This document shows positions 20,952 through 41,783 of a stretch of 59,163 bases of DNA, piece by piece. The stretch spans positions 1-59,163 of the forward strand of contig CAUJCX010000022.1 in NCBI GenBank assembly GCA_963169235.1, in the 5' to 3' direction. The notes beneath the pieces are model-generated. The model was not told the DNA's origin, did no database searches, and saw only the letters and a list, made by a program, of their open reading frames with translations. A program made the translations under genes and the position numbers. How positions within the stretch are numbered: the first letter of the stretch is position 1; every line of letters starts with the position of its first letter. The stretch is from Actinomycetota bacterium (GTDB lineage Bacteria > Actinomycetota > Thermoleophilia > Miltoncostaeales > Miltoncostaeaceae).

Positions 20952-21545
20952 GTGGCCCCCGTGAAGCGTGCGGGCGCCGTCGCCGCGGCCGTCGTGTTCG
21001 CGCTCACCGCCGCCCAGCTGGTGGTGGGGGCCGTGTCGGGCCTCGAGCAGTTCGAGGGCAAGGCGTTCGGCGCGCGGCTGGCCGCCTACCCCCTGATGAT
21101 GCTGGTGGCGCCCATCGCATGGAAGCTGGCGAACCGCGCAAAGGCCTGGGGGGACGCCCCGTGGGGCGCGTTCGCCTTGATCATGGCGCCGTTCCTCATC
21201 GACGTCACCGGCAACACGCTCGACCTCTACGACCGCGTGTGGTGGTGGGACGACGCGAACCACTTCGGCAACTGGGTACTCCTCAGCCTGGGCATCGGTC
21301 TGTTGATGGCGCGGGTGCCCGTGCGGCCCCCGTGGGCCCTGGGACTGGCCACCGCCGGCGTGGGTGCGCTGCTGGCCATCGGCTGGGAGCTGGGTGAGTG
21401 GTACGCGTTCATCCGCCACGGCACCGAGAAGTCGACCGCGTACGAGGACACGCTGGGCGACGAGGCCCTGGGATCGCTGGGCGCCGCGGTCGCGGGCGCC
21501 CTGCTGTGGTGGCGCGCGCGGCGCCGCACCTCACCGTCTACCTGA
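20952..21545 (+). CDS. DUF2238-like membrane protein
   Basis: About 197 residues, 5-6 membrane helices, with DANHFGNWVLLSLGIGLL and the charged block GWELGEWYAFIRHGTEKS followed by AYEDTLGDEALGSLGA, as in DUF2238/YjdF-type proteins. Start uncertain: GTG 20952 has AGGGG upstream; ATG 20908 or GTG 20781 (overlapping the DoxX stop) would add a basic, low-complexity extension. The last codons and stop lie in the left copy of a 19-bp repeat bounding the 20-kb island. Confidence 0.75.
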   Translation: MAPVKRAGAVAAAVVFALTAAQLVVGAVSGLEQFEGKAFGARLAAYPLMMLVAPIAWKLANRAKAWGDAPWGAFALIMAPFLIDVTGNTLDLYDRVWWWDDANHFGNWVLLSLGIGLLMARVPVRPPWALGLATAGVGALLAIGWELGEWYAFIRHGTEKSTAYEDTLGDEALGSLGAAVAGALLWWRARRRTSPST

Positions 21546-21549
21546 GGTT
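21531..21549 (+). repeat. Left direct repeat of the 20-kb island (att-like)
   Basis: 19 bases beginning TCACCGTCTACC, 18/19 identical to 41765-41783 (one G/C difference; 13 bases from TCTACC onward exact). It spans the final codons and stop of the DUF2238-like gene, a typical placement for a site-specific integration target. Weaker similarity continues about 15 bases upstream. No integrase was found. Confidence 0.5.
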
Positions 21550-21557
21550 GGGTGCGT

Positions 21558-22952
21558 CTACGTCACCTGGTACCTCGTGCCCAGACCGTCCAACACGATC
21601 GCCAGCGCCCTCAGGTCCGGCTCGGCAAGGGAGTCGAACGGCGGCATGGCCGACCCTGGCACCTTCGATGATGGTGCCTTCAGGTGATCGATGTGCCACT
21701 GCACGCCCTTGTTCTGCGCGCCGATGGTGTTCAGGTCCGGACCCAGGCTGCCACCGCCTGAGCCGATCACGTGGCAGCTCTGGCAGCTGTTGGCGGCGAT
21801 GACCTCAGAGGCCCGCTCGGTGTTGTCGTCCTGCGGCTCGAACGAGAGCTGGCCGGACGCAACCGCGGTCGATGCCCAGAGGCCCGACGGTGGCTCGTAC
21901 GCGGCCGCGACCGGAGTCTGGACCGTGAGGTAAGGCTCGTACACGCCCGCCCACACGCCCATGTCTTGGAGGGCGGGCCGCACCCGCTGCGTGATCGTGA
22001 CCACGCTGGTCGAACCGACGTCGATGGTCGCGGGGTCGGAGCACGTTCCCGACTCACCCCACTCCGCGGTCACGGTGCACAGCGTCGTGCCGTCGACGTC
22101 CACCGTCCACTCGGCGGTCGATCCCTGCTGCGACGTCGCGGACTCGTCAAAGAGGAAGCGGCCGTCCATCCCGATCACGCGCGTCCCCTCGGGCAGGCCC
22201 ATGCTCGACAGGTCGAAGCGCATGGTGCCGTCGGCGTCGTCCGGGCTCTGCGAGCTGCCGCACTGCACGATGGCGCTCTCCACCCTCTCTCCGTCGATGC
22301 GCATCCATGACGTCCCCTTCGGCCGCGGCCCCGGGCCGAAGCAGACGTCCGCGGGGTCGTCGGGGTCATCGCTCACGAACACCGTGGTCATGGGCAGCAT
22401 GATGGGGTCGTCGTACTCGGTGGCCGGGTCCGCGACCGCGGCCTCGTCCGCCTCGTCGGGCGCGGCGGGCTCGATCGTGTCGTCGGCGCCTTCCTCGTAG
22501 GACCCTTCGTCGATGGTCCCTCCATCGCCGTTTTGGGAGGCCACCGCCCATGACGGGGTGCCCTGGGGGGAGCCGATGCCCATGACGCCGGCGATGGCCA
22601 GCGTGACGGCGATGGCGGCGACCACCAGCCCGGCGACGAAGACGCCCGTCCGCGGCGGCGGTCCGGCATCGGCCGGCGCCAACGCCCTCGCGGCCGGGGC
22701 CGGACCGGCGTCGGCCAGGCGGGCCGTCGCGCGGGGGGCCACGGGGGTCCCGCACGCCGAGCAGAACGCCGTGCCCAGCGCGACGACCGCCCGGCAGGAT
22801 CCACACGGGGTGCCGTTCTCGGCACCGGCCTGAACCGGCGACGCCGCCGCCCGGGGCGGTGCCGGTGGCGGGGGCGCCGCGGGGGATCCACACGCTCCGC
22901 AGAACGGGTCGTCAGGACGTCGGGGGGCACCACAGCTCCAGCATTGCGACAT
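21558..22952 (-). CDS. Zinc-ribbon / transmembrane / cytochrome c fusion protein
   Basis: 464 residues, unusual architecture. Two CxxC-CxxC zinc ribbons (Cys 4, 7, 18, 21 and 50, 53, 64, 67), a Pro/Ala linker, one membrane helix (about 100-122, GVFVAGLVVAAIAVTLAIAG), an acidic spacer, a beta-rich domain (about 190-350) reminiscent of NPCBM-type modules, and a C-terminal class I cytochrome c domain with heme site SCQSCH near 387 and likely axial Met in GSAMPPF near 434. The topology (ribbons inside, heme outside) is self-consistent. ATG at 22952. First island gene on the left, divergent from the secreted-protein operon. Confidence 0.85.
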   Translation of the reverse strand: MSQCWSCGAPRRPDDPFCGACGSPAAPPPPAPPRAAASPVQAGAENGTPCGSCRAVVALGTAFCSACGTPVAPRATARLADAGPAPAARALAPADAGPPPRTGVFVAGLVVAAIAVTLAIAGVMGIGSPQGTPSWAVASQNGDGGTIDEGSYEEGADDTIEPAAPDEADEAAVADPATEYDDPIMLPMTTVFVSDDPDDPADVCFGPGPRPKGTSWMRIDGERVESAIVQCGSSQSPDDADGTMRFDLSSMGLPEGTRVIGMDGRFLFDESATSQQGSTAEWTVDVDGTTLCTVTAEWGESGTCSDPATIDVGSTSVVTITQRVRPALQDMGVWAGVYEPYLTVQTPVAAAYEPPSGLWASTAVASGQLSFEPQDDNTERASEVIAANSCQSCHVIGSGGGSLGPDLNTIGAQNKGVQWHIDHLKAPSSKVPGSAMPPFDSLAEPDLRALAIVLDGLGTRYQVT

Positions 22953-23051
22953 GGAATTCCGCCTGTCCAGTGTTTCACTGATCCCGCGGCGCCCGAGGAC
23001 GTGTTGAGGCGGGACGAGGGGAAGTCCACCGCGGCAACCCGATGCGCACCA

Positions 23052-23065
23052 GTTACGCGCATAAC
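23052..23065 (+). promoter_or_regulatory. Island palindrome 1 (GTTACGCGCATAAC)
   Basis: Perfect GTTA-N6-TAAC dyad in the divergent region between the cytochrome c fusion gene and the secreted operon, 60 bases before the ATG at 23126. One of five related sites confined to the island. Confidence 0.55.
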
Positions 23066-23125
23066 GTGCCATTCCAGCACCGAAGCAGCAGGCTCTGCAT
23101 CGAGTCCACTCGATGGGGAGATCCG

Positions 23126-24190
23126 ATGGCATACCACCTGAAGGGCGGGGCGCTACTGGCGGCGCTGGGCGCGCTCGTCTGTGCGCCCACCGCGCTCGGC
23201 GACAGGTCGGTGATCACCAACCTTGACGCCGCGGGCCGCGACGACCCGGTGGCGCTGGTTCCCCGCACGTTCACCGTGGTGGCCAACACCAGCGTGAAGA
23301 AGCGGGTCCTCATCAAGTACCGGGCGGTGGGAGGTGCCCCGTGCGCTCCGTCGGCCAACAGCGACTCGGGCACGTGGGCGCTGCAGTGGCCGTACTACTT
23401 CGAGATCAACGGGGACAAGACCACGGGGGAAGTCAAGACGTGGTCCACGACCGGACCGCTGATGTTCTGCACCTGGCTGGCCGACAACGGAAGCTCGGTC
23501 GCGACGCCGATCACCCAGACCATCACGTTCCGATCGCCGACATCGACGATCGACGCGAGCCAGTCGCCTTCCCCCGCGACTGCCGGGGCCGACTTTATCA
23601 TCGGGGCGAGCCTCACCACCGAGGCCCCCGCCCGCTTCTACGCGACGCTGGCGAACCCCGGGGTGGCGTGCGCCGGCACGTTCGGCAGCGACAGTGGCAG
23701 CGAGCTGACCGACGGGACTGAGGTCAACGGCACCGCATCCTTCCAGTGGAAGGTCAACCGGCCGGCCGGCACCTACATGCTGTGCACCTGGTTGGCGAAG
23801 TCGGCGTCCGACACGGCGCCGATCGCGCGACAGTCGTTCCCGATCTCCGTGGTCGCCCCGCCTGCGCCCCCGCCGCCGCCTCCCCCGCCCGCGAAGGCGG
23901 CGACGGCTGTCGGCGTGGCGTTCCCCAGCTCCATCCGGCTGCGGCGCTTGGTGGCGATCCGCGCGCGGGTCAGCGCGACCTCGGGGACGCCCACGGGCAT
24001 GTGCTACGCCGACCGCTTCATCTCCCGGCGCTGGGAACCGATCGCCTCGGGGGCGGTGGCGTCCAACGGTATCTGCCGTATGACCGTCCGCATGGGGCGC
24101 CGCGGCAGGGAGCAGCTGCGCGTCAGGTACCGCCCCTCGGGGAACTTCCTCGCCAGCGTGTCCCGCTACCGCTCCGTCAGGGTGAGGTAG
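23126..24190 (+). CDS. Secreted two-repeat beta protein of unknown function
   Basis: 354 residues, family not recognised. Signal peptide 1-25 (GGALLAALGALVCAPTALG). Two tandem beta-rich repeats of about 100 residues, each ending in a near-identical LMFCTWLADN / YMLCTWLAKS element and each containing one further cysteine, so a disulfide per repeat is likely. A Pro run of about ten residues leads into a basic C-terminal domain (about 265-354). ATG at 23126 follows GGGGAG. Start of an apparent operon with the next two or more genes, under palindrome 1. Confidence 0.85.
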   Translation: MAYHLKGGALLAALGALVCAPTALGDRSVITNLDAAGRDDPVALVPRTFTVVANTSVKKRVLIKYRAVGGAPCAPSANSDSGTWALQWPYYFEINGDKTTGEVKTWSTTGPLMFCTWLADNGSSVATPITQTITFRSPTSTIDASQSPSPATAGADFIIGASLTTEAPARFYATLANPGVACAGTFGSDSGSELTDGTEVNGTASFQWKVNRPAGTYMLCTWLAKSASDTAPIARQSFPISVVAPPAPPPPPPPPAKAATAVGVAFPSSIRLRRLVAIRARVSATSGTPTGMCYADRFISRRWEPIASGAVASNGICRMTVRMGRRGREQLRVRYRPSGNFLASVSRYRSVRVR

Positions 24191-24194
24191 GACG

Positions 24195-24704
24195 ATGCCG
24201 ACGCCGAGCGGCTGGTACCCCGATCCGTTGCACGACACCCAGGCACGCTTCTTCGACGGGAGGGCCTGGACCCGCTGGACCGTTGGGATGCCGGCCACCC
24301 CGGCACCGGTGGTGGGTGGACCTCCGCCCGGGGCGGCCCCCGCAGCGCAGGAGGGCCTGGGATGGCTCTTTCTGTCCCTGAACGGGAGGGCCAACCGCAG
24401 CACCTGGTGGCTGGGCGCCATCATCCTGACGGTGGCCTACACCGCCGGGATGTTCCTGCTGGGCGGCCTGTCTGAAGGCAACGCGTCGTCCTCGCCGATC
24501 ATGACCTCCGGGCTCATCCTGTACCTGGTGGCGGCCGTGGCGTCGTGGATGGTCAACGGCAAGCGCTGGCACGACCGGGGGAAGTCCGCGGCGTGGAACC
24601 TGATCGGGCTGATCCCCGTTGTGGGAGCGCTGTGGGCCTTCATCGAGCTGGGCTTCGTGCCCGGCACCGCGGGGCCGAACGCGTACGGAGAGGAGCCGTC
24701 GTGA
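24195..24704 (+). CDS. DUF2510-DUF805 membrane protein
   Basis: 169 residues. N-terminal DUF2510 motif PSGWYPDPLHDTQARFFDG, a Pro/Ala linker, then DUF805 with four hydrophobic helices; NGRANRSTWWLGAIIL and GKRWHDRGKS are typical DUF805 elements. Four bases after the preceding stop and overlapping the next start, so part of a tight operon. Likely a membrane component for the exported products; function of the family unknown. Confidence 0.87.
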   Translation: MPTPSGWYPDPLHDTQARFFDGRAWTRWTVGMPATPAPVVGGPPPGAAPAAQEGLGWLFLSLNGRANRSTWWLGAIILTVAYTAGMFLLGGLSEGNASSSPIMTSGLILYLVAAVASWMVNGKRWHDRGKSAAWNLIGLIPVVGALWAFIELGFVPGTAGPNAYGEEPS

Positions 24705-25714
24705 GGCGTGTGGAGCGCGGCCGGCGCGTACCGGTGGCACGTGCGATCGCGCTGGCCGTGGCCGCCTCAGCCCTCGGCGCGTCGGGCGCGGTGGCGCTCG
24801 GCGGGAGCGCGTTCAACGCGCGCCTGGGTGGCGGAGGTGCGACCGCCGGGATGGCGCAGTGTTTTGCAACGCCGAGCGGAGGGGTCACATGCGAACCGGC
24901 GCTCCCTCCCGCCGGGCGCTGTTCGGTACGCGGGATGCCTGGCCAGGCCTTCCGGGGTATCGCGCTCGGGGCTACGGGCCGCGCGCGCGGCGTGCGCACG
25001 TGCTACATCGAACGCGACGGCGGCGGCATCCCCACCCTGCGCGGGGGTGAGACGTGGGCGTACCGGGGATCGCCCGGCGTGACGTGCCGCAGCCTGCGCC
25101 GGGGGGGCGGCACGGCTGCCCCGCTCGTTGTCACGTGCCGCAACCGCACGAGATACGGGTTCACCATCAGCGCACCGGGCCGCATGGTGCCGTTCACCCC
25201 GCCCGCGAAGAAGCACTCCACCGCGCGCTCGGCCGTCGCCCCCGAGAACCTGGTTCCCAGCAACACCCCCGAGGCCCGGTTCGGCCGGTTCACGCAGGAC
25301 GGAGGGCCCGACGCGCCCCACCTCATCCGGGCGTTCGGCCCACCCGACGTGGTCCGTGAGACCGAGAGCGGCTGCTTCATGCGGTGGCGCGCCATCGGGG
25401 CGACGGTGAGCCTCACGACGTTCGGAAACGGGACGTCGGCATGCCAGGAGGGGACGTTCATCCAGGCATGGCTCAACGGCCCGCAGTGGCGTACCCAGTT
25501 CGGGGTCGGGCCCGGCGTCTCCGCCCACGCGGCGGCGCGCCGCGCCCTTCGCCCGTGCCGGAAATCGTGGGAATGCGGCGGGCCGGGACGCCGCGGCTAC
25601 GTGTATCGCACCGACCGGTCTGACTGCGGAGCGGGACGCTCTGTGACGCTGGCAGGCGAGGTGCGGAAAGGGCGCGTCGTCGCGCTCGTCGTGATGTGGC
25701 ACGGATGCGAGTAG
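24701..25714 (+). CDS. Exported Cys-rich protein of unknown function
   Basis: 337 residues, not recognised. Basic N-terminus followed by hydrophobic ARAIALAVAASALGASGAVAL, a signal peptide or anchor. The mature part has about ten cysteines (for example MAQCFATPSGGVTCEP, TCRSLRRGGG, VTCRNRTRYGF), suggesting disulfides. GTG at 24701 overlaps the DUF805 stop (GTGA), so it is co-translated. Middle of the island secreted operon. Confidence 0.82.
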   Translation: MRRVERGRRVPVARAIALAVAASALGASGAVALGGSAFNARLGGGGATAGMAQCFATPSGGVTCEPALPPAGRCSVRGMPGQAFRGIALGATGRARGVRTCYIERDGGGIPTLRGGETWAYRGSPGVTCRSLRRGGGTAAPLVVTCRNRTRYGFTISAPGRMVPFTPPAKKHSTARSAVAPENLVPSNTPEARFGRFTQDGGPDAPHLIRAFGPPDVVRETESGCFMRWRAIGATVSLTTFGNGTSACQEGTFIQAWLNGPQWRTQFGVGPGVSAHAAARRALRPCRKSWECGGPGRRGYVYRTDRSDCGAGRSVTLAGEVRKGRVVALVVMWHGCE

Positions 25715-25780
25715 GCACGTGAACCCCACATGCACCCACGCGATCCTCGCACCAAGCTGGTGCGACCTCAGGAGGAAGTA

Positions 25781-27547
25781 ATGAAGGTGCACCAGATGGT
25801 TTCCGGACACGGTCGATCCCGCCGCGGTCGACCGCCCTGCCCACGCGCCGCTCGCGCGTACGGCACGGTGACGGCCCTGTTGCTGGCTCCCCTCGCCGGC
25901 AGCGCTTGGACGGCCACGGCCGCGCCCGCGCCCGCGGGCGTGATCACCCGCCAAGCACAGATCTCGCAGGACCTCGCTCAGTGGTGTGGGCAAGGGGCGG
26001 AAAACCTGGTGGTCGTGTTCACGGTGCGCGGGTCGGGCCAGCCCCCAGGGGGATGGGGCAACGACCGCTCCGACAACACGCTCAACGGGGTCTACTTTGG
26101 CGAGCTCTCGACAGCCCTCGCGGCGAAGGGCTACCGCGTCTATGGACGCGAAGCGGACTACATGGCCGCCAGCGTCGACTACGTCACGAAGTCCTACCAA
26201 CTGGGCACTTTCATCCGTTCGGCGCTAGATAGGCGGCGTGACATCGGTGCGGCCATCGGCGACATCAACGCCCGGTGCCCCCGGGCATCCGTGGTGCTCG
26301 CCGCCTATTCCCAGGGTGGCATCGCGTTGCGGGCAGCGCTGCCGTTCGTCCCCTCGAGCGCCATCAACCGCGTGGTCGCCGTCGACCTCTTCGCGGACGC
26401 GTCCGCCAACGCCAGGCAGGACGCGGGGATGCCCACCGGGCGCACCCGACGCTCGTACGTGTGGCGACGCAGAACGTTCGGCCTGTATAGCGTCGGCCAA
26501 GCGGCGAGGGATGCGGAGATAAGGGCCCAGCTGGGCCCCGGCGGGGCTGCTGCGGTGCGGCTCTTCGCCGGGGGACCCAAGGCGAGCAACCCGTACCTGA
26601 TCTCGCTGGCGGCGTACCCCGCGACCCTGCGCCCACGTGTGGATCAATACTGCCACGACGAGGACCCCGTGTGCGACCCCACCGCGTTCGCCCAGCACTG
26701 GGTCGGGCGCTGGGGCTACATTCCTTTCGGCGGTTCCGGAGCCCCGGCCTCGTACGCAGCATGGAAGGTCGGATTGCACAGCGCGTACCCGTGGCGCTAC
26801 GCCGCTGCGGACACCGGCGACGGTTTTGCGGCGGTACCCCGGTCCGCAGCTGCACCGGCACCCGCCGCGCCGGCGCCCACGAGCGCGCCCGCCTCCCCGG
26901 CCGCAGCGCCTCCCGCGCCAGTCGCGCCTCCGCCCGCGCCTGAGCCGCCGGCGCCCGCCGGCCCCTCGTGGACGCAGGTCACCGGGGGTGTCACCAACAC
27001 GTGGACGAACTACGTGAACGCCGGGGGCACCCACGGCGGGACGATCCCCGGCCAGACGGCCGTGCAGATCGCCTGCAAGGTGACCGGATTCCGCGTGGCC
27101 GACGGCAACACCTGGTGGTACCGCATCGCGTCACCGCCGTGGAACGGCCAGTTCTACGCGTCGGCCGACGCGTTCTACAACAACGGGGCCACATCGGGGA
27201 GCCTTGCGGGTACCCCGTTCATGGACCCGGCGGTGCCGGACTGCGCGGGTTCCGGAGGCCCGGGTGGCGTCGCCGAGACCACCGGTGGATGGTCGAACAC
27301 GTGGACGAACTACACCAACGCCGGGGGCACGCAGGGACCGTCCATCCCCGGGCAGGCGACGGTGACGATCGCCTGCAAGCTGCAGGGCTTCCGGGTGGCC
27401 GACGGCAACACCTGGTGGTACCGCATCGCGTCGCCACCGTGGAACGGCCAGTTCTACGCCTCGGCGGACGGCTTCTACACCAACGGCGCGACGTCCGGCG
27501 GCCTCCATGGCACGCCGTTCGTCGACGGCGCCGTGCCGGACTGTTGA
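25781..27547 (+). CDS. Cutinase-like secreted serine hydrolase with two WWYR modules
   Basis: 588 residues. Signal sequence at about 20-50 (VTALLLAPLAGSAWTATAAPA). Alpha/beta-hydrolase domain of cutinase type: nucleophile in VVLAAYSQGGIAL, acid in the disulfide loop YCHDEDPVCD, and His in GLHSAYPWRY. After a Pro/Ala linker, two about 90-residue modules (about 397-488 and 501-588) contain TNTWTNYVNAGGT, FRVADGNTWWYRIASPPW and NGQFYASADAFY. Likely an esterase acting on lipids or polyesters at the envelope, docked by the modules. ATG at 25781 has GGAGG. Paralogue of 38376-40046. Confidence 0.87.
   Translation: MKVHQMVSGHGRSRRGRPPCPRAARAYGTVTALLLAPLAGSAWTATAAPAPAGVITRQAQISQDLAQWCGQGAENLVVVFTVRGSGQPPGGWGNDRSDNTLNGVYFGELSTALAAKGYRVYGREADYMAASVDYVTKSYQLGTFIRSALDRRRDIGAAIGDINARCPRASVVLAAYSQGGIALRAALPFVPSSAINRVVAVDLFADASANARQDAGMPTGRTRRSYVWRRRTFGLYSVGQAARDAEIRAQLGPGGAAAVRLFAGGPKASNPYLISLAAYPATLRPRVDQYCHDEDPVCDPTAFAQHWVGRWGYIPFGGSGAPASYAAWKVGLHSAYPWRYAAADTGDGFAAVPRSAAAPAPAAPAPTSAPASPAAAPPAPVAPPPAPEPPAPAGPSWTQVTGGVTNTWTNYVNAGGTHGGTIPGQTAVQIACKVTGFRVADGNTWWYRIASPPWNGQFYASADAFYNNGATSGSLAGTPFMDPAVPDCAGSGGPGGVAETTGGWSNTWTNYTNAGGTQGPSIPGQATVTIACKLQGFRVADGNTWWYRIASPPWNGQFYASADGFYTNGATSGGLHGTPFVDGAVPDC
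26968..27543 (+). repeat. Tandem coding repeat (two WWYR modules)
   Basis: Two roughly 265-275-base units encode near-identical modules at the end of the cutinase-like gene. The same module, very similar at DNA level, ends the M23 peptidase gene at 40084-40357 (other strand), so recent duplication or recombination between island genes is likely. Confidence 0.8.
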
Positions 27548-27548
27548 G

Positions 27549-27624: not shown

Positions 27625-27650
27625 TACCTCGACCCATGGGAGGTAGCATC

Positions 27651-28370
27651 GTGAGCACGCCAGTGTGCGGTCTGAGAGGGCCTCGTCGCCCGGGTCGGCT
27701 GGTGCACTTGCTGGCCCTGGCGGCGGGTGCTGCCGTGGTCCTTCCCCCGGCGGCCGTGTCGGCTCCACGGATCTGGTGCTCCGAGACCGGTGATTCGTGC
27801 ACCACGATCGCCATGACGCGTAGCGCCGTCGTCGTCACCGAGAGCTACGCCGCCACCATGGAGGGGCCACGCAACGTATGCGTCACCAGCCCCTCGGGGA
27901 GGCGGTGCATCGACGTCGCCTCCCGCCCGAGGAACGGCGCCACGGTGTGGACGGCCGTCTTCCGTAGTCCACAGCAGGGGTTCTGGCTCACCGGGCCGCG
28001 GGAGGCGCCGCTGGGAGTCTGGGCGGGGCGCATGAAGCGCGGGGCGGGCCCCGGCGTCACGAACGTCGGCGGCGGGTTGGCCGGATCTGGTGATCGCCTG
28101 TGGGCGAGCGCGCGGATCTGCAACAGCACGGGGGCGGCGCGGCGGTATTACGCCGAGTTCCGGGGCTACGCATCGAAGTCCGTACCGTCCGGGTTGGTCA
28201 CGCGGGTGTTCCGCGTCGGCGCGCATCGCTGCATCAGGCCGTCGATGATTGAGGTCCCTGACTGGACGGGCCGGAACTACCGGACCAGTCGGAGCTTCGT
28301 CACGGTCCTGGTACGCGACACCGCAAACGGGCGGGCCACCGTGCGTACGGGCCGGCTGTGGGGCGCGTAG
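27651..28370 (+). CDS. Secreted protein of unknown function
   Basis: 239 residues, not recognised. Signal peptide 1-36 (LVHLLALAAGAAVVLPPAAVSA). The mature part is beta-rich with several cysteines (RIWCSETGDSCTT, RNVCVTSPSGRRC) and many Arg. GTG at 27651 chosen because GGAGG lies eight bases upstream; an in-frame ATG at 27636 overlaps that site. Same strand as the preceding island operon but separated by a structured 100-base gap. Confidence 0.8.
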   Translation: MSTPVCGLRGPRRPGRLVHLLALAAGAAVVLPPAAVSAPRIWCSETGDSCTTIAMTRSAVVVTESYAATMEGPRNVCVTSPSGRRCIDVASRPRNGATVWTAVFRSPQQGFWLTGPREAPLGVWAGRMKRGAGPGVTNVGGGLAGSGDRLWASARICNSTGAARRYYAEFRGYASKSVPSGLVTRVFRVGAHRCIRPSMIEVPDWTGRNYRTSRSFVTVLVRDTANGRATVRTGRLWGA

Positions 28371-28399
28371 GCCGGTCCCCGAGCGGCACCCCCCCGGGG

Positions 28400-28413: not shown

Positions 28414-28448
28414 TCGCCATGAGTGTGACGCACCGTGACAGTACCGTC

Positions 28449-32957: not shown

Positions 32958-33443
32958 TCAGGCACGGGTACAGATGTCGAAGCGGGCGTCCGGGTCGCTC
33001 CCCACGTACGACGCGCCCCACCGCAGTTCGGGCGGGCCGGTGAGGAACTTCAGGCACTGATAGATGCGGGTGGCGGGCTCGCGCCGGAACACCGCGATGC
33101 GTACCGCAGCGGTGTCGCAGGAGCGGGGAACGCTGGTGCAGACCTCCATGCGACCCGTCGCCGTCGGCCGCGCCGAGTTCCATCCGCTCCACTTCAACGC
33201 CGTGAGCTTGACGCCCAGGCCGCGCCTCGGGATGCGGTTCGGCACCCACGTCGGGGGGCGCTGCCGGGCAATGCCTCCGACCATCACGAACGACGAACCC
33301 GCGTCGCGGCACATCGCGCACCGGGGATCGAGGCGGGCGGGCACTCCTGACGACGCGGACGATGACGACACCAGCGCCAGCGCGAGCGCGGCACATCCGG
33401 TGCCCGCGATGCGCGACATCCCGGGGAGAATGCGGGGGCTCAC
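32958..33443 (-). CDS. Secreted protein of unknown function
   Basis: 161 residues, not recognised. Signal peptide at 1-32 (IAGTGCAALALALVSSSSA). Six cysteines in the mature part (for example DPRCAMCRD, VCTSVPRSCD, FDICTRA), suggesting disulfides. GTG at 33443 is preceded by GAAGGAG. Begins 27 bases after the lectin/CHAP gene and is probably in its operon. Confidence 0.8.
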   Translation of the reverse strand: MSPRILPGMSRIAGTGCAALALALVSSSSASSGVPARLDPRCAMCRDAGSSFVMVGGIARQRPPTWVPNRIPRRGLGVKLTALKWSGWNSARPTATGRMEVCTSVPRSCDTAAVRIAVFRREPATRIYQCLKFLTGPPELRWGASYVGSDPDARFDICTRA

Positions 33444-33470: not shown

Positions 33471-35426
33471 CTACCGCCGGGGACGCAGGTAGCCGAGTAG
33501 GTTCCCCTTCGAGATGCTCTGGGTGTGCGCGTACGCGCCGCCCCAGTTCTGGTGGAAGACGTCGAGCGTGGAGCCCCGGTCCGCAAGCACGATGGCCACG
33601 TGGCCGGCGCCGTAGGACCCCGGCAGGTCGCTGGAGTACACTGCGACGTCGCCCTTCTGGGCGGCCGCGCCCGGCGACACCTTGTCGTAGTTGCTGTTGA
33701 TCGGGCCGAGGTCGTTGCGCGTCCAGAGCTGGTAGGCGTACGGCGTCCACGGGATCGCGCCGATGCCCAGCGTGTCGCGGTGATAGAAGTTGAACAGGTC
33801 GACGCACTGGGCGCCGTAGACGCCGTCGAAGTCCACGGCCCTCCCGTTGTACGCCGACACGAAAGCGTCGACGCGCGACCCGCCGCCGCCTCCACCGCCC
33901 TGGATGCGACCCGTCTGCGACGACCACGTCGGGCCGGACGCGATGTAGACCACCAGGTTGCCGTCGTCCTGCATCAGCAGGACGGGGTTCTCTCCGGTGG
34001 TCCCCGAGTCCCACAGCGCAGGTCCCGCGTAAATGACGAGGTTGCCGTCGCTCTGCATGTAGACGCTCGCTCCGGCGTGCCCGACGGTGCCGGAGTCCCA
34101 CTGCGCGGCACCACCCGACCGGTAGACCACGAAGTTGCCGTCACCTTGCATCTCGGCGGAGTAGCCACCATTCGGTGATACCAGATGCGTCCCCGGCCCC
34201 AGGTGGGAGTTCACACCCAGCATGTAGCCGACGTATCCGGTTCGGATCGACCAGATCGTGCGGCCTTGGCCCGTGAGCACGAGGTTGCCGTCGTCCAGAA
34301 GGCGCAACGATGCCCCCGGGAACCCGGCGGGACCGCTCGCCCACCGCGTCGCGCCCCCTTGGATGACGCTCATGGTGCCGTTTCGGCCCGGGCTCACGAC
34401 GAACTCCGCATTCGCCCCCGACGTGTTGGTCGTCCACACCGTGGAGCCCCCGTCCGACAGGACGACGTTGCCGGAGGCGAGCATCTCGAAGCGGTGGCGC
34501 CCGTTGGGGCTGCGCAGGTTGTCCCCTGGGTAGAGGCGCTGCCCCTCCTCCATGCGGTCGCCCACGAAGCCGCGCCGGGTGCCCCAGACGTCGTGGCCCT
34601 TCTGCGTCAGGACGACCTCGCCGACCGGGGTGAGGCCCAGCGCCGCGCCGGGGAAACCGGTCGTTCCCGAGCGCCACGTGACGGAAGCGCCGCTACGGAG
34701 CACCAGCTCGCCGTCCGCGCGCATCTCCGCCGCCGCGTCCGGTCCGCCACCCCCGCTTGTCCACACCGTGCGGGAGCCGGACATGACGGCAAGCTGGCCG
34801 TCCCCGGTGATCTGGAGCGTCATGTCCGTCGACGGCTCGAGGACCTTGTCACCAGGCAGAAGGGTCTGCCCGGACAGGAGCACCCCGGAGGGATAGACGA
34901 CGGGGGTTCGCGGTGCGGGCGGGGGCGTTGAGCTGGGTACCTCTGTCGCGCTGCTCGTCGCCGGGCCCACCGTCCCGCTGGCAGGTGCAGAGGCCGCAGG
35001 CGGGCGGGCCGGGGTCACCACGACAGGGCTCGGGGTGGCCACCGGCGCGGTGCGACTCGTCCGGGGGATCACAAACGACGCGCGCAGAACCCGCACCCTC
35101 CCGCCGATGGAACAGCGAGCGACCACGCGCACACGCATACCGGGGCGCGCCGCGCGCACCCCGACGGTGACGGCGGACCCTCCGCGCGGGCTGATCCGGA
35201 CCCCGAACGGGCGCCTCCGGCCTGCGCCGTCGATGACCTGGACCGCGCAGCGTACGCGGGCGGGACCCGTCACCGCGATCAGGCCTCGGCTCGGGCCCTC
35301 CGCCTGCGCCGTGACGGACACGGCGGCGCGACTTGCGGCGTCCGCGGCCGAGACTGCGGTGGCTGCGCCGCACAGAGCGAGCGACGCAGCGGTGACGCTG
35401 GAGAACGCGCGGGGGCGACGGCTCAT
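33471..35426 (-). CDS. Secreted lectin-repeat protein with C-terminal CHAP domain
   Basis: 651 residues. Signal peptide 1-28. A beta domain, Pro/Ala/Ser linker (about 125-175), then three or so bulb-type mannose-lectin (B-lectin) repeats (about 180-510) with many DGNLV/GDGNFVVY-type motifs such as MQSDGNLVIYAG and LLDDGNLVLTGQG. A Gly run leads to a CHAP domain: catalytic Cys in YGAQCVDLFNFY, His in GAGHVAIVLADRG. Likely a carbohydrate-docked peptidoglycan amidase or endopeptidase. ATG at 35426. Palindrome 4 lies about 110 bases upstream. Confidence 0.9.
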   Translation of the reverse strand: MSRRPRAFSSVTAASLALCGAATAVSAADAASRAAVSVTAQAEGPSRGLIAVTGPARVRCAVQVIDGAGRRRPFGVRISPRGGSAVTVGVRAARPGMRVRVVARCSIGGRVRVLRASFVIPRTSRTAPVATPSPVVVTPARPPAASAPASGTVGPATSSATEVPSSTPPPAPRTPVVYPSGVLLSGQTLLPGDKVLEPSTDMTLQITGDGQLAVMSGSRTVWTSGGGGPDAAAEMRADGELVLRSGASVTWRSGTTGFPGAALGLTPVGEVVLTQKGHDVWGTRRGFVGDRMEEGQRLYPGDNLRSPNGRHRFEMLASGNVVLSDGGSTVWTTNTSGANAEFVVSPGRNGTMSVIQGGATRWASGPAGFPGASLRLLDDGNLVLTGQGRTIWSIRTGYVGYMLGVNSHLGPGTHLVSPNGGYSAEMQGDGNFVVYRSGGAAQWDSGTVGHAGASVYMQSDGNLVIYAGPALWDSGTTGENPVLLMQDDGNLVVYIASGPTWSSQTGRIQGGGGGGGSRVDAFVSAYNGRAVDFDGVYGAQCVDLFNFYHRDTLGIGAIPWTPYAYQLWTRNDLGPINSNYDKVSPGAAAQKGDVAVYSSDLPGSYGAGHVAIVLADRGSTLDVFHQNWGGAYAHTQSISKGNLLGYLRPRR

Positions 35427-35534: not shown

Positions 35535-35548
35535 GTAATGTACGTAAC
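35535..35548 (-). promoter_or_regulatory. Island palindrome 4 (GTTACGTACATTAC on minus strand)
   Basis: One mismatch from GTTA-N6-TAAC; core CGTACA. 108 bases before the ATG of the lectin/CHAP gene and oriented with it. Lies in the 196-base gap 35427-35622 between two minus-strand genes, where I see no other gene. Confidence 0.5.
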
Positions 35549-35622
35549 CGGGGCTGCCCTCGTCGTCGTCCACCCTCCCCACGGTCACCGCGCCCGCAAC
35601 TCGTACGTCGCGGCCTCGGGTC

Positions 35623-37659
35623 TCACCCCTCCGGCGAGGGAGAGGGAGGTCCCAGCCGCGTCAGAACCTGGTTGAGGTCGGTCCGCAGACGGTCGAGCTG
35701 CCGCCGCAACGCGATCATGTCGGGCGTGTGCCCCTCATCCTTGGCCACGCGGGACGACGTCAGAAGTGCCGCTCCCACGTATTGGCGCAGGGTGTGGTGA
35801 AGCTGCGCTTGCGCGATGGCCGCGGCGCGCAGGTGCTCGTGGACCCGCAGCGCCTCCACCTCTGCCTCGACGGTGTCCTCGTAGACGTCGAGCGTGTCCT
35901 GCGAGCGTGCGAACACCCACGTCATCCCGCTGGCGATGGCAAGTACCACCAGGTAGGCACACACGTTGAAGGCCCAGTCGATGGGCATCGTTTGCACCAG
36001 CGTGCCGTGGTCGTCCACCGGCAGCGTCGTCATCATCCAGTAGCCGAAGAGCAGGGCACCGGAGAGCATCGCCACCAGCGCCGCGCCGGCCTTCCAGCCT
36101 TTGAAGTGCGCGAGCGTCAGGATGCACCCCATCGACACGGGGATCCACGGGCACGACATGCCGCCCTGGAAGGCAACGCACACCACCAAGAGACCGCTGT
36201 CCCACCACGCGACATCGGGGTGGCGATAGACGAACGGCCGCAAGCGCTGCCACCACACGAAACCCACGAAGTTGATCGCCACGAGCACGAATGACGTGGC
36301 GATCAGCATCGGGAGGATGGTGCGGTGCTCGCCGGCCTTGATCGGGATCATCACGGCGGTCAGTACCGCGAAGGCCAATCGCACGAACAGCAGCGCCCGC
36401 TCGTACGAGACGAAGCGCGCCGTGAAACGCGCGCGCGCACCCTCGACGCGCCGCGCCTCGTCGCCCGCGTCACGCACGGGTACGACGACCCGCACCCGGT
36501 GCATGCCGTCCTCGTGCGTACGGTCGAGTTCCACCCCCGCAGCCTTCGCATCGGCCTCCATGGCGCTCAGTCCCAGGCTGCCCCAGCGACGCGACGATGG
36601 CGCATCCGACGGGTTGGCCACCTCCACGTGCACCGTCCCTTCGTCGTCGGTGGTCGTGATGACCTCCGCGGTGCCCGGCCCGTGCTTGCGCGCGTTGTTG
36701 AGCGCCTCGGTCAGCACGCGCTCGAGGGCCTCGTGATCGACGCCCGAGAGCGGGGCGTCGTCCTGCGACCGCACCACCACGTCTCCCCCCAGGGCGGCAC
36801 TGGCATCCGCGGCCCGCGTGATGACCTCGTCCACCGACCGCTCGGGCACGGCCGCGCCCACCGTGCCCAGCGAACGCAGTGACTCCCTGATACGCGCCAG
36901 AGTGTGCACGAGCGCTTGACGACGCTGCGACGGCTCCTCGCCCGGAGGCACCGGGGGGACCGTGAGGCCGTCCAGGTGCACGCGCAGGCCCCTCGCCACG
37001 TCGACATTGATCTCGTGCACCTCACGGTCGCGGGCAACTGAGGCGCGTGTGGCGACCAGGTCGCCCCGAACGTTCTTCTCGGCTGCGATCAGGCCGTCGA
37101 TGTCGTTGACGACGCGCCGCACGGACGACACCAGGAAGAACCCTGTGGCGGCCAAGAGCGACGGCGCCAATGGCGTGATGGGGGTGTCTGCGATCACCGC
37201 GGGAGCGATTCGGTCGACCAGCATGCTGCCCCACAGCGCCATGGCCAAGCCCAGGGTCGCGATGCCGCCCGACCGTAGGCCGAGGAAGTACGTGATGAAC
37301 GCGATCGGCACGTATGCGTGCAGAACGTGCCACGATTGGCTGCCCAGGCCGAGGAACGCCAGCACCGCGAACACCGCCATCTCGGTGATGGGGATCCACG
37401 GGCGCGCAGCAACCCATTTCAGATGCGACCACGACAGCAGCATGGACAAACCCGTCCAGACCGCGAGAACCGCCCACACCACCATCGTGACCGTGCGGAC
37501 CTCGTCGAGGTCCTGGGCCACCAGCAGGGTGAGCAGCGCGACGACGGGAAACGCGAAGCGCGCGATCAGGGTCGCGTGGAACAGCCGCACCTCGAACGAC
37601 CGCACCCGTCCCTCGAGGACCCAGGCCGGCGTTACCGTCTCGGAGCCGCGAGCGGGCAC
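35623..37659 (-). CDS. Membrane sensor histidine kinase with a second membrane/DHp-like half
   Basis: 678 residues. First half: five or six membrane helices (about 30-180), a dimerisation coil with His in REVHEINVDVARGLRVHLDG, and a HATPase_c domain (about 305-395: N-box EALNNARKHG, G-box WGSLGLSAME), typical of NarL-partner kinases. Second half: another membrane domain (about 420-585), then a coil with QAQLHHTLRQYVGAALL that looks like a second phospho-acceptor helix, but no second ATPase domain. GTG start at 37659. Divergent from the response regulator gene with 48 bases between. Probably senses an envelope cue for the island. Confidence 0.85.
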   Translation of the reverse strand: MPARGSETVTPAWVLEGRVRSFEVRLFHATLIARFAFPVVALLTLLVAQDLDEVRTVTMVVWAVLAVWTGLSMLLSWSHLKWVAARPWIPITEMAVFAVLAFLGLGSQSWHVLHAYVPIAFITYFLGLRSGGIATLGLAMALWGSMLVDRIAPAVIADTPITPLAPSLLAATGFFLVSSVRRVVNDIDGLIAAEKNVRGDLVATRASVARDREVHEINVDVARGLRVHLDGLTVPPVPPGEEPSQRRQALVHTLARIRESLRSLGTVGAAVPERSVDEVITRAADASAALGGDVVVRSQDDAPLSGVDHEALERVLTEALNNARKHGPGTAEVITTTDDEGTVHVEVANPSDAPSSRRWGSLGLSAMEADAKAAGVELDRTHEDGMHRVRVVVPVRDAGDEARRVEGARARFTARFVSYERALLFVRLAFAVLTAVMIPIKAGEHRTILPMLIATSFVLVAINFVGFVWWQRLRPFVYRHPDVAWWDSGLLVVCVAFQGGMSCPWIPVSMGCILTLAHFKGWKAGAALVAMLSGALLFGYWMMTTLPVDDHGTLVQTMPIDWAFNVCAYLVVLAIASGMTWVFARSQDTLDVYEDTVEAEVEALRVHEHLRAAAIAQAQLHHTLRQYVGAALLTSSRVAKDEGHTPDMIALRRQLDRLRTDLNQVLTRLGPPSPSPEG

Positions 37660-37707
37660 TATGGTATGGCCGACTGCAGTGAGGGATTGTCGAGGAGGAT
37701 CCCCCGG

Positions 37708-38352
37708 GTGATCTCCGTGCTCGTCGTGGAGGACCAGTTCGAGTGGGCGGACAGCGTCCGCTTCGAGGTGGCCTGCCAGAAGGGGATGAAGGCGGTCGGA
37801 TCGGCGCTCACGGTGCGCGAGGCGCTGGACATCTGCAGCGCGCAGCGCGTGGACGTAGCCGTCGTCGACCTGGTGCTCCAGGGCGAGTACGGCCTCGACT
37901 TCCTGCGGACCGCCTCACAGCGATACCCCTCCACGGCAGTGGTGATGATGTCGGCGCAGCCCACTCCCTGGGCTGTCGAGGAGGCCCGCACGTGCGGCGC
38001 GGTCGGGTTCATCGACAAGAAGGACATGGAGTCGGCGGAGGGCATCGCCCGCATCATCAGCCGCGTCGCCAACGGCGAGGCCGTGTTCACTCCCGGCGTC
38101 AGCGGCGAGTTCGGCCAGTCGCTGGCGCAGGCGTACGGCCTGAGCCAGAAACACCGGGAGATCCTCCGCTGCCTACGGCGCGGCATGGTGGTGGAGGAGA
38201 TCGCCGACCACCTGAACATCGTGCCTCAGACCGTGCGCAACTACATCTCGGCGATCGCCCGTGCCGCCGGCGTGCCGGGCAACCAGGTGAAGGTGCTCGC
38301 GTGGTACCTCGATGAACTCGAGTCGGGGCGCTTCCCCGACGAAACCGCGTAG
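37708..38352 (+). CDS. NarL/LuxR-type response regulator
   Basis: 214 residues. Receiver domain 1-120: acidic pocket VVEDQFEW, phospho-Asp in VVDLVLQGEYG, MMSA (Thr/Ser switch) and IDKKD (conserved Lys). LuxR-type HTH at the C-terminus: GLSQKHREILRCLRRGMVVEEI then QTVRNYISAIARAAGV. GTG at 37708 after GAGGAGG. The only dedicated DNA-binding protein inside the island, so the best candidate to bind the five palindromes; dimeric sites fit this family. Confidence 0.9.
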   Translation: MISVLVVEDQFEWADSVRFEVACQKGMKAVGSALTVREALDICSAQRVDVAVVDLVLQGEYGLDFLRTASQRYPSTAVVMMSAQPTPWAVEEARTCGAVGFIDKKDMESAEGIARIISRVANGEAVFTPGVSGEFGQSLAQAYGLSQKHREILRCLRRGMVVEEIADHLNIVPQTVRNYISAIARAAGVPGNQVKVLAWYLDELESGRFPDETA

Positions 38353-38375
38353 CTGACGACGAACCGGGATCATGG

Positions 38376-40046
38376 TCACCTCGGCACCCGGGGCAGACGG
38401 ATGCGGGCGATCACCTGCGGGCGGGCCGCCACCGTCTGGATGACGACGGTGCCCGCAGCCGCGAGGCGACGTAGGCGCAGCGTGACGGTGGCCGTGGCGC
38501 CTGTGGTGATCGTCCGCGCGACCCGCCTCCCCTGTGTCACCGTGACCCGGTAGCCCCGTGCGTTGCCGAGCGGGCTCCACGTCACGACGAGGCGCCCGCG
38601 CACCCACCGCGCCGACGCCGCCGCACGGGTAGGCGTCGAGGGGGTCGCCACCGGCTGCGGGGGGCCCGCCGACGGCCCAGGGAGCGCAGCCGCGGCCGCA
38701 ACGGCCGCAGGTGGCGGGGGTGCCGCCGCGGGGGTAGCGATCGGCGTGACGATGGGGGCGCGCCCCGGCGGCACGAGCGGGACAGGGGCGTCCACGGGAC
38801 CGATCGGAAGGGTGTCGTCGCCGCAGCGGGCCCATACCCCGTGGCGATCGGGGAGGCGGTCGAGCGTGGCGGCGGGTAGAACCGCCGGACCCGCACCCAG
38901 CCGCATCAGGCAGTGGTACGTCGCGGCATCGGGGATCCACATGCGCGTCAGGTCCGGGGCCACCAGCCAGGAGGTGCGCGGGTTCGCCGTATCCCCGCCC
39001 CACTGCACGAGGCTCCAGCGGTAGCTCGCGACCTCGTACGGCGCCGGCTCGGGCGGCGCGCCGAACGCGTCCGCCGTATCGAGGGCGATGTAGCGCAGGG
39101 GGTAGGCGCCGTGCAGGCTGGTCCCGAGGCCCCACTGCGCCTTCACGGCGCCCGAGTCCCACGACAGCAGGCTCAGCGACGCCGCGCCGGCGAGGGCCCG
39201 GGTGAATGCGCCACTGTCGCAGACCAGGTCGCCGTCGTGACAGTACTGGTCGATACGGGGCCGCAACCACGCCGGGTAGACGGGTGCGTCCTGCACGCCG
39301 CTGATGCCGTCGAGCCCGTAGAGCTTGCGGGCGGCAAGCGAAACGGGATCCCGGCCATTGCGAAGCTTCACCGCGACCCACCAGATGCCCTGGGTGGAGC
39401 GGCGCCACACGTACGAGCGCGTGGTGCGGCCGCGGGGCATGCCGTCGTCGCCCTCGGCCCACGCCGACGCGTCGGCGATGAGGTCGATGTTCTCCACCCG
39501 CACCAGGTACTGGGGCTCCAGCAGCGCCACCGCGCTGCGTAGCGCGATGCCCCCTTGCGAGTACGCGGCGATCACGATGCGCGCGCTCGGGCACTGCACC
39601 GCCATGTTGCGGATCTGGGCGGCGATCGCCCGCCGGTAGGCGACGGCGCTGAGGATGAAGTCCTGCACCTGGCCGTCTTTGAGGGCGTCCACCGACAGCG
39701 CCGGGTAGCGCGCCTCCATGCCGTAAACGCGGTAGCCCTTGTCGCGCAGCGCCGTGCTGAGCGCCTCGAAGTACGCGCCGTTGAGCGAGTTGCCGCTGGT
39801 GACGTCGCCCCACCCGCCGTACGGCTGACCCGAGCCCCGCACCGTGAGCACCACCACGAGGTTGGTGGCGTCCTGGTGGCACGACGCGCGCATCTCGTCG
39901 AACGCCTCGGGAGTCTCGACCGGCGCGACGATGGCGGGCGCCGGGTTCTGCGGAATGGTGGCGGCAGCGCCCTGCATTGAGGTGCCTCCGGCCGCCAGGC
40001 AGGCGGCGAGCATTGCGCGCTTCCAGAGGACGCTGCGGGACATCAT
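38376..40046 (-). CDS. Cutinase-like secreted serine hydrolase with QW/DAATY module
   Basis: 556 residues. Signal peptide 1-29. Cutinase-type domain with nucleophile in IAAYSQGGIAL, acid loop YCHDGDLVCD and His in SLHGAYPLRY. A module at about 340-405 has LVQWGGD, MWIPDAATYHCL and LDRLPDRHG, shared with the M23 protein encoded just upstream. Pro/Ala linker, then a fibronectin-like C-terminal domain (RLVVTWSPLGNARGYRVTV). ATG at 40046 (or 40043) after AAGGA, 34 bases past the M23 stop, so both form an operon. Paralogue of the enzyme at 25781-27547. Confidence 0.87.
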   Translation of the reverse strand: MMSRSVLWKRAMLAACLAAGGTSMQGAAATIPQNPAPAIVAPVETPEAFDEMRASCHQDATNLVVVLTVRGSGQPYGGWGDVTSGNSLNGAYFEALSTALRDKGYRVYGMEARYPALSVDALKDGQVQDFILSAVAYRRAIAAQIRNMAVQCPSARIVIAAYSQGGIALRSAVALLEPQYLVRVENIDLIADASAWAEGDDGMPRGRTTRSYVWRRSTQGIWWVAVKLRNGRDPVSLAARKLYGLDGISGVQDAPVYPAWLRPRIDQYCHDGDLVCDSGAFTRALAGAASLSLLSWDSGAVKAQWGLGTSLHGAYPLRYIALDTADAFGAPPEPAPYEVASYRWSLVQWGGDTANPRTSWLVAPDLTRMWIPDAATYHCLMRLGAGPAVLPAATLDRLPDRHGVWARCGDDTLPIGPVDAPVPLVPPGRAPIVTPIATPAAAPPPPAAVAAAAALPGPSAGPPQPVATPSTPTRAAASARWVRGRLVVTWSPLGNARGYRVTVTQGRRVARTITTGATATVTLRLRRLAAAGTVVIQTVAARPQVIARIRLPRVPR

Positions 40047-40080
40047 CGGGATTCCTTCGAGGTCTGCGGTCCGGATCGGC

Positions 40081-41508
40081 TCAGCAATCGGCGACGGCAG
40101 CGTCGACGAACGGCGTGCCCCTCAGGGGCCCGGAGGTCTGGCCGTTGTTGTAGAAGGCGTCCGCCGACGCGTAGAACTGGCCGTTCCACGGGGCCTGCGC
40201 GATGCGATACCACCACGTGTTGCCGTCGGCCACCCGGAACCCTTGGAGCTTGCAGGCGATCTGCACGGTCGTGTTGGGGGGGATCGTCGCGCCCTGGGTA
40301 CCCCCGGCGTTGGTGTAGTTGGTCCACGTGTTGGTGTATCCACCTGTGGTCTGGCCCCACGTGGGGGGCGGGGTCGGCGTGGGCGTCGGCGTCGGCGTGG
40401 GCGTGGGCGTGGGTGTGGGAGCGGGCGGCGGCGCCGAGCTGGGAGCGGGGGCTGGCGTGATGACGGTGCTGTCGTCACAGAACACGCTGGCGCCGGTGAG
40501 GTCGGGAAGGCGGTCCAGCTCGCTCGCCGGCAGCACGTCGGGGCCCACGGCGCCCCGGGCCTTCAGACAGTTGTACGTCGCAGCGTCCTTGATCCACAGG
40601 CGCTGCAGCCACGGTGTCACCAGCCACGCCGTCTTCTGGGCCTTGGAGTCGCCGTCCCACTGGACGATGTGGCCCCGGTACCGGCTCAGGTCGGAGGCGC
40701 CGGGCGCGGGCACTGCAGCGGCCGGCGTCTGCGGAGCATTCGCCGATCGCAGCGTCGCGCCGGTGGGTGATGGCCCCTCCACGAACTGCCACGGCAGGGT
40801 CTGCTGTGTCACGCAGTTCATGCGTCCGTAGTGCAGGTGGGCGCCGTCGGACCTTCCCGTGTTACCCGAACGGCCGATCATCTCGTACTGGCGGATCTGC
40901 TGCCCCAGCGACACCCCGACCACGGAGAGGTGGGCATGCATCGCACACGTTCCGTCCGGGGCCTTCAGCAGAACGTAGTTGCCCCACCCTCCCCCACACT
41001 CCCGATGCGGGCCAGGGCCAGCGACGCACCCCGTGGAGACGCGGGCGACCACACCGGTGAAGCCCGCTCGCACCTCCGTCCCTGATGCCACCGGCAGGTC
41101 GACGGCGTCGCGCGTGGTGGCTCCGTTGTGCGAGTAGCGACTCCCGGGCCCCTGGCTCACCGTTACCGTGTAGCCCGTCGCCAGTGGCATGTACGTACTG
41201 AAGCCGACCGCGCCACCCGTTCCTTCCGGGAGGATGACCGTGTACGCGTTCGGGTTTCCCCGCCCGGGGGGCAGGCCTCGCCGCACCGGGATCGGCGCAC
41301 CGCGGCGGATCGCGCACACCTTCTTCGCCTTCCGGGCCGCACGACGGGCCGCGATGGTGTTGCACTGGGCCGGCTTGGCGACGCATTTCCGGGCCTTGCC
41401 GACGCACCCCGGTGCCGCCTGCGCGGACGTCGAGAGCGCCATCGCAGCCAGCGCCCCACCCGCAAGAAGACCACAGCGAGTGGCCCACCGAGACCCATGC
41501 TTGATCAT
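40081..41508 (-). CDS. Secreted M23-family peptidase with two C-terminal modules
   Basis: 475 residues. Signal peptide 1-31. LytM/M23 zinc peptidase: His127 and Asp in SHNGATTRDAVD, HAH at 191-193 (CAMHAHLS) and GAHLHY at 222-227; cleaves peptide cross-bridges of peptidoglycan. Two loop disulfides are likely. The QW/DAATY module (279-344: IVQWDGD, WIKDAATYNCL, LDRLPDLTG) is followed by a PTPT linker and one WWYR module (about 384-475, GNTWWYRIAQAPWNGQFYAS). ATG at 41508 after GGAGAG. Leads an operon with the second cutinase-like gene, under palindrome 5. Confidence 0.9.
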   Translation of the reverse strand: MIKHGSRWATRCGLLAGGALAAMALSTSAQAAPGCVGKARKCVAKPAQCNTIAARRAARKAKKVCAIRRGAPIPVRRGLPPGRGNPNAYTVILPEGTGGAVGFSTYMPLATGYTVTVSQGPGSRYSHNGATTRDAVDLPVASGTEVRAGFTGVVARVSTGCVAGPGPHRECGGGWGNYVLLKAPDGTCAMHAHLSVVGVSLGQQIRQYEMIGRSGNTGRSDGAHLHYGRMNCVTQQTLPWQFVEGPSPTGATLRSANAPQTPAAAVPAPGASDLSRYRGHIVQWDGDSKAQKTAWLVTPWLQRLWIKDAATYNCLKARGAVGPDVLPASELDRLPDLTGASVFCDDSTVITPAPAPSSAPPPAPTPTPTPTPTPTPTPTPPPTWGQTTGGYTNTWTNYTNAGGTQGATIPPNTTVQIACKLQGFRVADGNTWWYRIAQAPWNGQFYASADAFYNNGQTSGPLRGTPFVDAAVADC

Positions 41509-41617
41509 GGCTACTCTCCGTACCTGAATAGTGACGAAACGGTTCGTACAACATGTCGACACCGCACTATGGGTGCGGGGTCGCCGGAATCGTCCCAGTC
41601 GTGCCCTACCGGAGCTA

Positions 41618-41631
41618 GGTACGCACATAAC
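41618..41631 (+). promoter_or_regulatory. Island palindrome 5 (GGTACGCACATAAC)
   Basis: One mismatch from GTTA-N6-TAAC. 109 bases upstream of the M23 ATG (minus strand); its stronger half points away from the gene, acceptable for a palindromic site. The surrounding 41509-41764 shows no supportable gene. Confidence 0.5.
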
Positions 41632-41764
41632 CGATTCTGGAAGCGGCACGCGAACGCGCGCAGCCGTGCGAGAAGCCCAGCAGCGCGCCGCCCGCCAGAA
41701 CGCGTCACCAGCGCGCGCAGTGCCCTACGTCACACTACGAGGCGCCCGCGTGGCGCTGCCAGCA

Positions 41765-41783
41765 TCACCCTCTACCTGAGGTT
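41765..41783 (+). repeat. Right direct repeat of the 20-kb island (att-like)
   Basis: TCACCCTCTACC..., 18/19 identical to 21531-21549. It abuts the stop codon of the universal stress protein gene. With the left copy it brackets all genes that carry the palindromes and the shared modules. Confidence 0.5.

What the first reader, a model, noticed from the sequence alone, without database searches (positions are those of the whole stretch)
21531..41783. A 20-kb secretome island bracketed by att-like direct repeats
Seen: 19-bp repeats (18/19 identical) at 21531-21549 and 41765-41783; the left copy covers the stop of a gene, the right abuts another gene. All genes between encode exported, membrane or two-component proteins, share modules with each other, and look less GC-biased than the flanks. 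Inference: site-specific acquisition of a functional unit. Weak point: no integrase and the repeat is short and imperfect.
Basis: partly seen in the sequence, partly recalled or inferred. Interest (0 to 1): 0.8.

Follow-up and report, generated by a model that had tools for sequence, protein, structure and literature searches.

The report
Lineage-specific island of secreted-protein genes
A 20-kb block of genes for exported and cell-wall-acting proteins sits in this actinobacterial genome at a spot where its nearest relative and a more distant one have none, so it was gained fairly recently, but its edges only suggest, and do not prove, that a mobile element put it there.

Summary
The two 19-mers exist (18/19) and are the only near-exact copies in the 2.94-Mb genome. 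They sit within about 20 bp of both ends of a block missing from the only held congener, G001 (HKST-UBA59), where the two flanking genes are neighbours. A second genus of the family (G015) keeps the neighbourhood without the block, so the block was gained, not lost. By a permissive rule 14 of 15 gene models carry a signal-peptide-like or membrane segment, against 39% genome-wide. GC, GC3 and tetranucleotides deviate. Cutinase, SH3-like and lectin modules were found in no family member searched.

Site-specific acquisition as one unit is not shown. No integrase, transposase, phage structural gene or tRNA was found. The empty site in G001 carries no 19-mer copy. The gene at the left edge is a chimera whose last 291 bp are a copy (85%) of the organism's own bc-complex gene, so part of the island was made in this lineage. 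Best reading: a mosaic accessory-secretome island (two cutinases, M23 and CHAP peptidases, a serine enzyme, a two-component pair) inserted between two convergent genes, the 19-bp repeat being the probable insertion footprint. New member of a known kind.

The parts
20781..21545 (+). left flank gene, small membrane protein (no Pfam family); orthologues in G001 and other family members
21531..21549 (+). left 19-bp repeat, contains the stop codon of the flank gene
21558..22943 (-). chimeric zinc-ribbon / transmembrane / cytochrome c protein; final 291 bp (21554-21844) 85% identical to own bc-complex gene on contig C11; middle part 41-44% identical at protein level to C26; start codon at or upstream of 22943 not settled
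23123..24190 (+). exported protein with weak Ig-like (Big_3_5) match, below cutoff
24195..24704 (+). DUF2510-DUF805 membrane protein
24725..25714 (+). exported protein of unknown family; distant paralogue on own contig C34 (49%); start uncertain
25730..27547 (+). cutinase-family esterase with two tandem C-terminal SH3-like modules
27639..28370 (+). exported protein of unknown family; start uncertain
28419..30350 (+). exported DUF7223 protein
30652..31578 (+). lipoprotein (lipobox LAGC) with C-terminal SH3-like module, weak match to GsmA model
31575..32672 (+). Beta-lactamase2-family serine enzyme with SxxK, SxN, KSG motifs and C-terminal hydrophobic segment
   Evidence: and sequence
32958..33443 (-). 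small exported protein, uncertain gene model
33471..35426 (-). exported B_lectin repeats + CHAP peptidase
35623..37659 (-). membrane histidine-kinase-like protein; HATPase_c match is below the Pfam cutoff
37717..38352 (+). LuxR-type response regulator (start approximate), divergent from the kinase
38376..40046 (-). second cutinase-family esterase, shares a ~77-aa module with the M23 protein
40081..41517 (-). exported M23 peptidase with one SH3-like module
41765..41783 (+). right 19-bp repeat, abuts the stop of the universal stress gene
41783..42220 (-). right flank gene, universal stress protein (G001 orthologue 70%)

Best explanation
A lineage-specific genomic island: about 20 kb of accessory secretome genes inserted between the 3' ends of two convergent core genes after this species split from G001. 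The 19-bp direct repeats most likely mark the insertion ends; joining the outer flanks through one repeat copy would leave the two stop codons 3 bp apart (TGA GGT TTA), a plausible compact convergent pair. The insertion could have been a circular DNA entering by a recombinase supplied in trans or since lost, or by short-homology crossover. Shown: lineage-specific presence, absence in the congener and in an outgroup genus, unusual content and composition, repeats at both breakpoints. Inferred: that the repeats are the crossover, and the agent. The content is a mosaic: most modules tested have no relative found in the family, while the gene at the left edge was built partly from the organism's own bc-complex gene. 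Proposed function (inferred): two-component-controlled export of envelope- and polymer-active enzymes (two cutinases, M23 and CHAP peptidases, a penicillin-binding-type serine enzyme, SH3-like and lectin binding modules) that remodel the cell's own wall or attack neighbours.
For: Empty site in the congener with colinear flanks on both sides; outgroup genus G015 keeps the neighbouring core genes within about 10 kb without the island; repeats within about 20 bp of both breakpoints, chance about 2e-4; 19-mer rare in the genome; cutinase in none of 40 relatives, SH3-like module only in three other genomes of 296 in the phylum and none of the family, lectin in no same-family genome searched, kinase only a 28% full-length relative in another family; composition and GC3; 14 of 15 exported or membrane; domain matches.
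Against: No integrase, transposase or conjugation gene recognised in the block; no tRNA target; no 19-mer copy at the G001 empty site; left-edge gene is partly a copy of a host gene; neighbouring stretches 19486-20982 and 42221-46318 also lack a match in G001, so the region may simply be plastic.
Confidence: 0.55

Rival explanations
1. Accretion hot spot: the block grew by several separate insertions, duplications and module exchanges at a permissive spot between convergent genes; the 19-bp repeats are a by-product or chance and do not mark a single event.
For: Left-edge gene is a chimera of host-lineage parts; one unknown exported protein has a paralogue elsewhere in the genome; modules duplicated inside the block; two nearby stretches are also absent from G001; secreted proteins are enriched in accessory genomes generally (PMC3506625).
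Against: An 18/19 repeat at both breakpoints is unlikely by chance; composition is shifted across the whole block.
Confidence: 0.33
2. Ancestral block lost in G001.
For: Two-species comparison alone cannot polarise the difference.
Against: Outgroup G015 lacks it at the syntenic place; cutinase, lectin and SH3-like families were not found in any searched family member.
Confidence: 0.06
3. Assembly or binning artefact: foreign DNA joined to the contig.
For: The genome is a 65-contig draft; the island differs in composition.
Against: Both flanks are on the same contig and colinear with G001; the repeats share only 13 identical consecutive bases, shorter than usual assembly k-mers (established knowledge); the left-edge gene's cytochrome domain groups with this genome's own copy (support 69).
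Confidence: 0.04

Closest known systems
Accessory-genome secretome genes (Nogueira, Touchon and Rocha 2012, PMC3506625)
   Same: Exported genes concentrated in the variable genome, absent from relatives
   Different: Here nearly every gene of a 20-kb block is exported or membrane-bound and the block is edged by a short direct repeat; the pooled analysis read there is of Firmicutes and Proteobacteria
Integrative elements with att direct repeats
   Same: Direct repeats at both breakpoints, empty site in relatives, deviant composition
   Different: No recombinase, no mobility genes, no tRNA target, no attB copy in the empty site examined
Cutinase locus on the 815-kb Miltoncostaea oceani plasmid (NZ_CP064357.1)
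   Same: Cutinase-family gene (29% identity) near other exported genes and a recombinase, in class Thermoleophilia
   Different: Low identity, no SH3-like module match, different neighbours
Lectin-like bacteriocins (putidacin L1, pyocin L) and other MMBL-domain proteins
   Same: B_lectin repeats of 33471-35426 align with putidacin L1 and pyocins L1/L2
   Different: Has a CHAP peptidase domain and scores below the NCBIfam cutoff; not a bacteriocin by that model

Membership tests
Integrative element / att-bounded genomic island | direct repeats at both ends | tested here: met
Integrative element / att-bounded genomic island | relative with an uninterrupted site | tested here: met
   outgroup
Integrative element / att-bounded genomic island | single repeat copy (attB) in the empty site | tested here: not met
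   best 11/19 in the G001 gap; G001 is diverged (about 76-79% DNA identity in flanks), so an intergenic 19-mer need not survive
Integrative element / att-bounded genomic island | integrase or other recombinase inside | tested here: not met
   Pfam, PHROGs, NCBIfam on the gene models
Integrative element / att-bounded genomic island | excision or transfer | not testable with these tools
   needs PCR or reads
Prophage or phage satellite | virion, packaging or replication genes | tested here: not met
   PHROGs matches confined to the CHAP/lectin and M23 proteins; no viral contig gave a confirmed relative of the cutinase or the SH3-like module, nor the 19-mer
Transposon with target-site duplication | transposase | tested here: not met
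   none among the gene models; terminal inverted repeats were not searched for
Lectin-like bacteriocin (for 33471-35426) | score above the NCBIfam LLB_putidacin cutoff, no enzymatic domain | tested here: not met
   127.9 bits against cutoff 275; CHAP domain present
Accessory secretome island | most genes exported, block variable among relatives | tested here: met

The most novel reading that the evidence does not exclude
A cargo element devoted to secreted wall- and polymer-degrading enzymes and their two-component regulator moves between Thermoleophilia by a recombinase supplied in trans, using 19-bp sites between convergent genes, and picks up host gene pieces at its edge.
Probability: 0.1. 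Interest if true: 0.7.

Novelty: new member of a known kind. Interest (0 to 1): 0.42.

Why it matters
It is a clear polarised case in an understudied class: a block of exported enzymes gained by one species at a locus that is empty in its congener and in another genus. It gives a testable footprint (a 19-bp repeat) for how secretome islands enter genomes, and shows that one gene at the island's edge was built partly from a respiratory-chain gene of the same lineage. If the enzymes attack other bacteria's envelopes, it is a competition module; that is untested.

Tried and rejected
Terminator or genome-wide motif: the palindromic core ACCCTCTACCTGAGGGT is found 16 times with up to 3 mismatches against 11 for the reversed control, so it is no abundant repeat; the left copy does not keep the hairpin arms. 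Phage origin: no hit of the SH3-like module in phages and no confirmed relatives or 19-mer in viral contigs. Repeat carried along with the copied bc-complex gene: no 19-mer downstream of the C11 gene (best 11/19). SH3-like fold: the structure prediction was too poor (mean pLDDT 57), and the profile search of PDB gave only antibody chains with weak scores, taken as spurious; 'SH3-like' therefore rests on a weak GsmA match of the lipoprotein copy. Two whole-genome searches failed and the file of the own genome was not available.

Full report
OBSERVATION. In the whole 2.94-Mb draft genome they are the only two copies with no mismatch to TCACCNTCTACCTGAGGTT; two others have 2 mismatches and eight have 3, against 1 match of the reversed control. 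For random pairs of 100-bp windows of this genome a match of 18/19 or better occurred 7 times in about 39,800 draws. The repeats are thus unlikely to be chance at just these two places, though in a 72% GC genome 18/19 repeats as such are not rare: 106 overlapping pairs in the window, 5 of them 15-30 kb apart.

EMPTY SITE AND POLARITY. In the only held congener (G001; the same contig is JAGQUM010000053.1, Thermoleophilia isolate HKST-UBA59) the left flank gene and the universal stress gene are neighbours. Window and G001 align from 13531 to 19486 (two blocks) and 20982 to 21515, then from 41802 to 42221 and 46318 to 50003. The island is therefore a clean difference, with breakpoints within about 20 bp of the repeats. 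The G001 gap of 283 bp appears to code a small hydrophobic protein and holds no copy of the 19-mer (best 11/19). In G015, another genus of the family, the homologues of the window genes at 49485, 46803, 20781 (inverted) and 13160 lie in the same order within about 10 kb, with neither island nor universal stress gene. Absence is therefore most simply ancestral, and the island was gained.

CONTENT. Fifteen gene models lie between the repeats: two cutinase-family esterases, an M23 peptidase, a lectin-repeat + CHAP protein, a Beta-lactamase2-family serine enzyme, a DUF7223 protein, a lipoprotein, a DUF2510-DUF805 membrane protein, a zinc-ribbon/cytochrome c protein, a weakly Ig-like protein, three exported proteins of no known family, and a divergent histidine-kinase-like / LuxR-type regulator pair. 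By a permissive rule 14 carry a signal-peptide-like or membrane segment; the same rule flags 39% of 296 genes in a 400-kb sample. A stricter rule flags 9 of 15, because alanine-rich signal peptides score low. Several starts are uncertain. Modules are shared: the two cutinases are about 48-50% identical; a 90-aa SH3-like module occurs twice in one cutinase and once in the M23 protein at about 80%; a 77-aa module links the second cutinase to the M23 protein. A weaker copy is in the lipoprotein.

ORIGIN. The second cutinase matched only inside the island among 41 genomes. The SH3-like module was found in 3 other genomes of 296 in the phylum, best 62%, none in the family. The lectin part matched 12 other genomes of 299 in the class, none in the same family. 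The kinase has one full-length relative (28%) in another family, next to a regulator gene, other matches being short. The only plasmid match to the cutinase is a 29% relative on the 815-kb plasmid of Miltoncostaea oceani, class Thermoleophilia. Composition differs from twenty 20-kb pieces of the genome, and GC3 is lower than in other genes with hydrophobic segments.

THE COUNTER-EVIDENCE. The gene at the left edge is not wholly foreign. Its last 291 bp (21554-21844), starting 5 bp inside the repeat, are 85% identical to the 3' end of this genome's own bc-complex gene, a fusion of a cytochrome b subunit IV-like part and cytochrome c in an operon with cytochrome b and Rieske genes (identification by reading the sequences and operon context). 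The island copy is closer to that gene (82% aa over 98 codons) than to the G001 orthologue (68%), and the two orthologues are 73.5% identical; the tree agrees with modest support (69). The copying thus probably happened in this lineage after the split from G001, or came from a close congener. Its middle part resembles another own gene on contig C26, and an unknown exported protein has a paralogue on C34. So the island is a mosaic, and arrival as one ready-made unit is not shown.

MECHANISM. No integrase, transposase or phage structural gene was recognised and no tRNA lies in the window. If the flanks are joined through one repeat copy, the convergent genes would end 3 bp apart. I think it somewhat more likely than not that the repeat is the footprint of an insertion; a recombinase in trans, a lost recombinase, or short-homology crossover of a circle would all fit. 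Stepwise accretion is the main rival.

FUNCTION (inference). Active-site motifs of the cutinases, the serine enzyme and the CHAP domain look intact by eye. The set suggests envelope or polymer degradation under control of the linked two-component pair. The lectin-CHAP protein resembles lectin-like bacteriocins only in its binding repeats; MMBL domains fused to other domains, and tandem MMBL proteins in actinobacteria, are described in PMC6240691.

VERDICT. Real, lineage-specific and well bounded, but of a known kind: secreted proteins are known to be enriched in the variable part of bacterial genomes (PMC3506625).

Noticed in passing
window 19486-20982 and 42221-46318: Two further stretches (helix-turn-helix + DoxX genes; GGDEF + ABC-transporter-type genes) have no DNA match at this place in G001, where 60 bp and about 1.9 kb lie instead. 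The region is plastic beyond the island.
   Followed up: partly
window 21554-21844 and L126 9810-10100: Apparent duplication of the 3' end of the bc-complex subunit IV-cytochrome c fusion gene into a new zinc-ribbon membrane protein.
   Followed up: yes
L126 9814-11390: The genome's own bc complex has a cytochrome b subunit IV-like part fused to cytochrome c.
   Followed up: no
window 35623-37659: The kinase-like protein has its HATPase-like region in the middle, followed by a second set of hydrophobic segments; a 28% relative exists in G036.
   Followed up: partly
window 54827-55479: Small gene pair that looks like a VapBC-type toxin-antitoxin pair from its sequence; not tested against a family library.
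   Followed up: no
G000:C59:68909-68927 (L004): A perfect palindromic version of the repeat core lies at the stop codon of a gene between two convergent genes.
   Followed up: partly
L070 (NZ_CP064357.1): Miltoncostaea oceani megaplasmid region with cutinase, L,D-transpeptidase, S8 peptidase and recombinase genes.
   Followed up: partly
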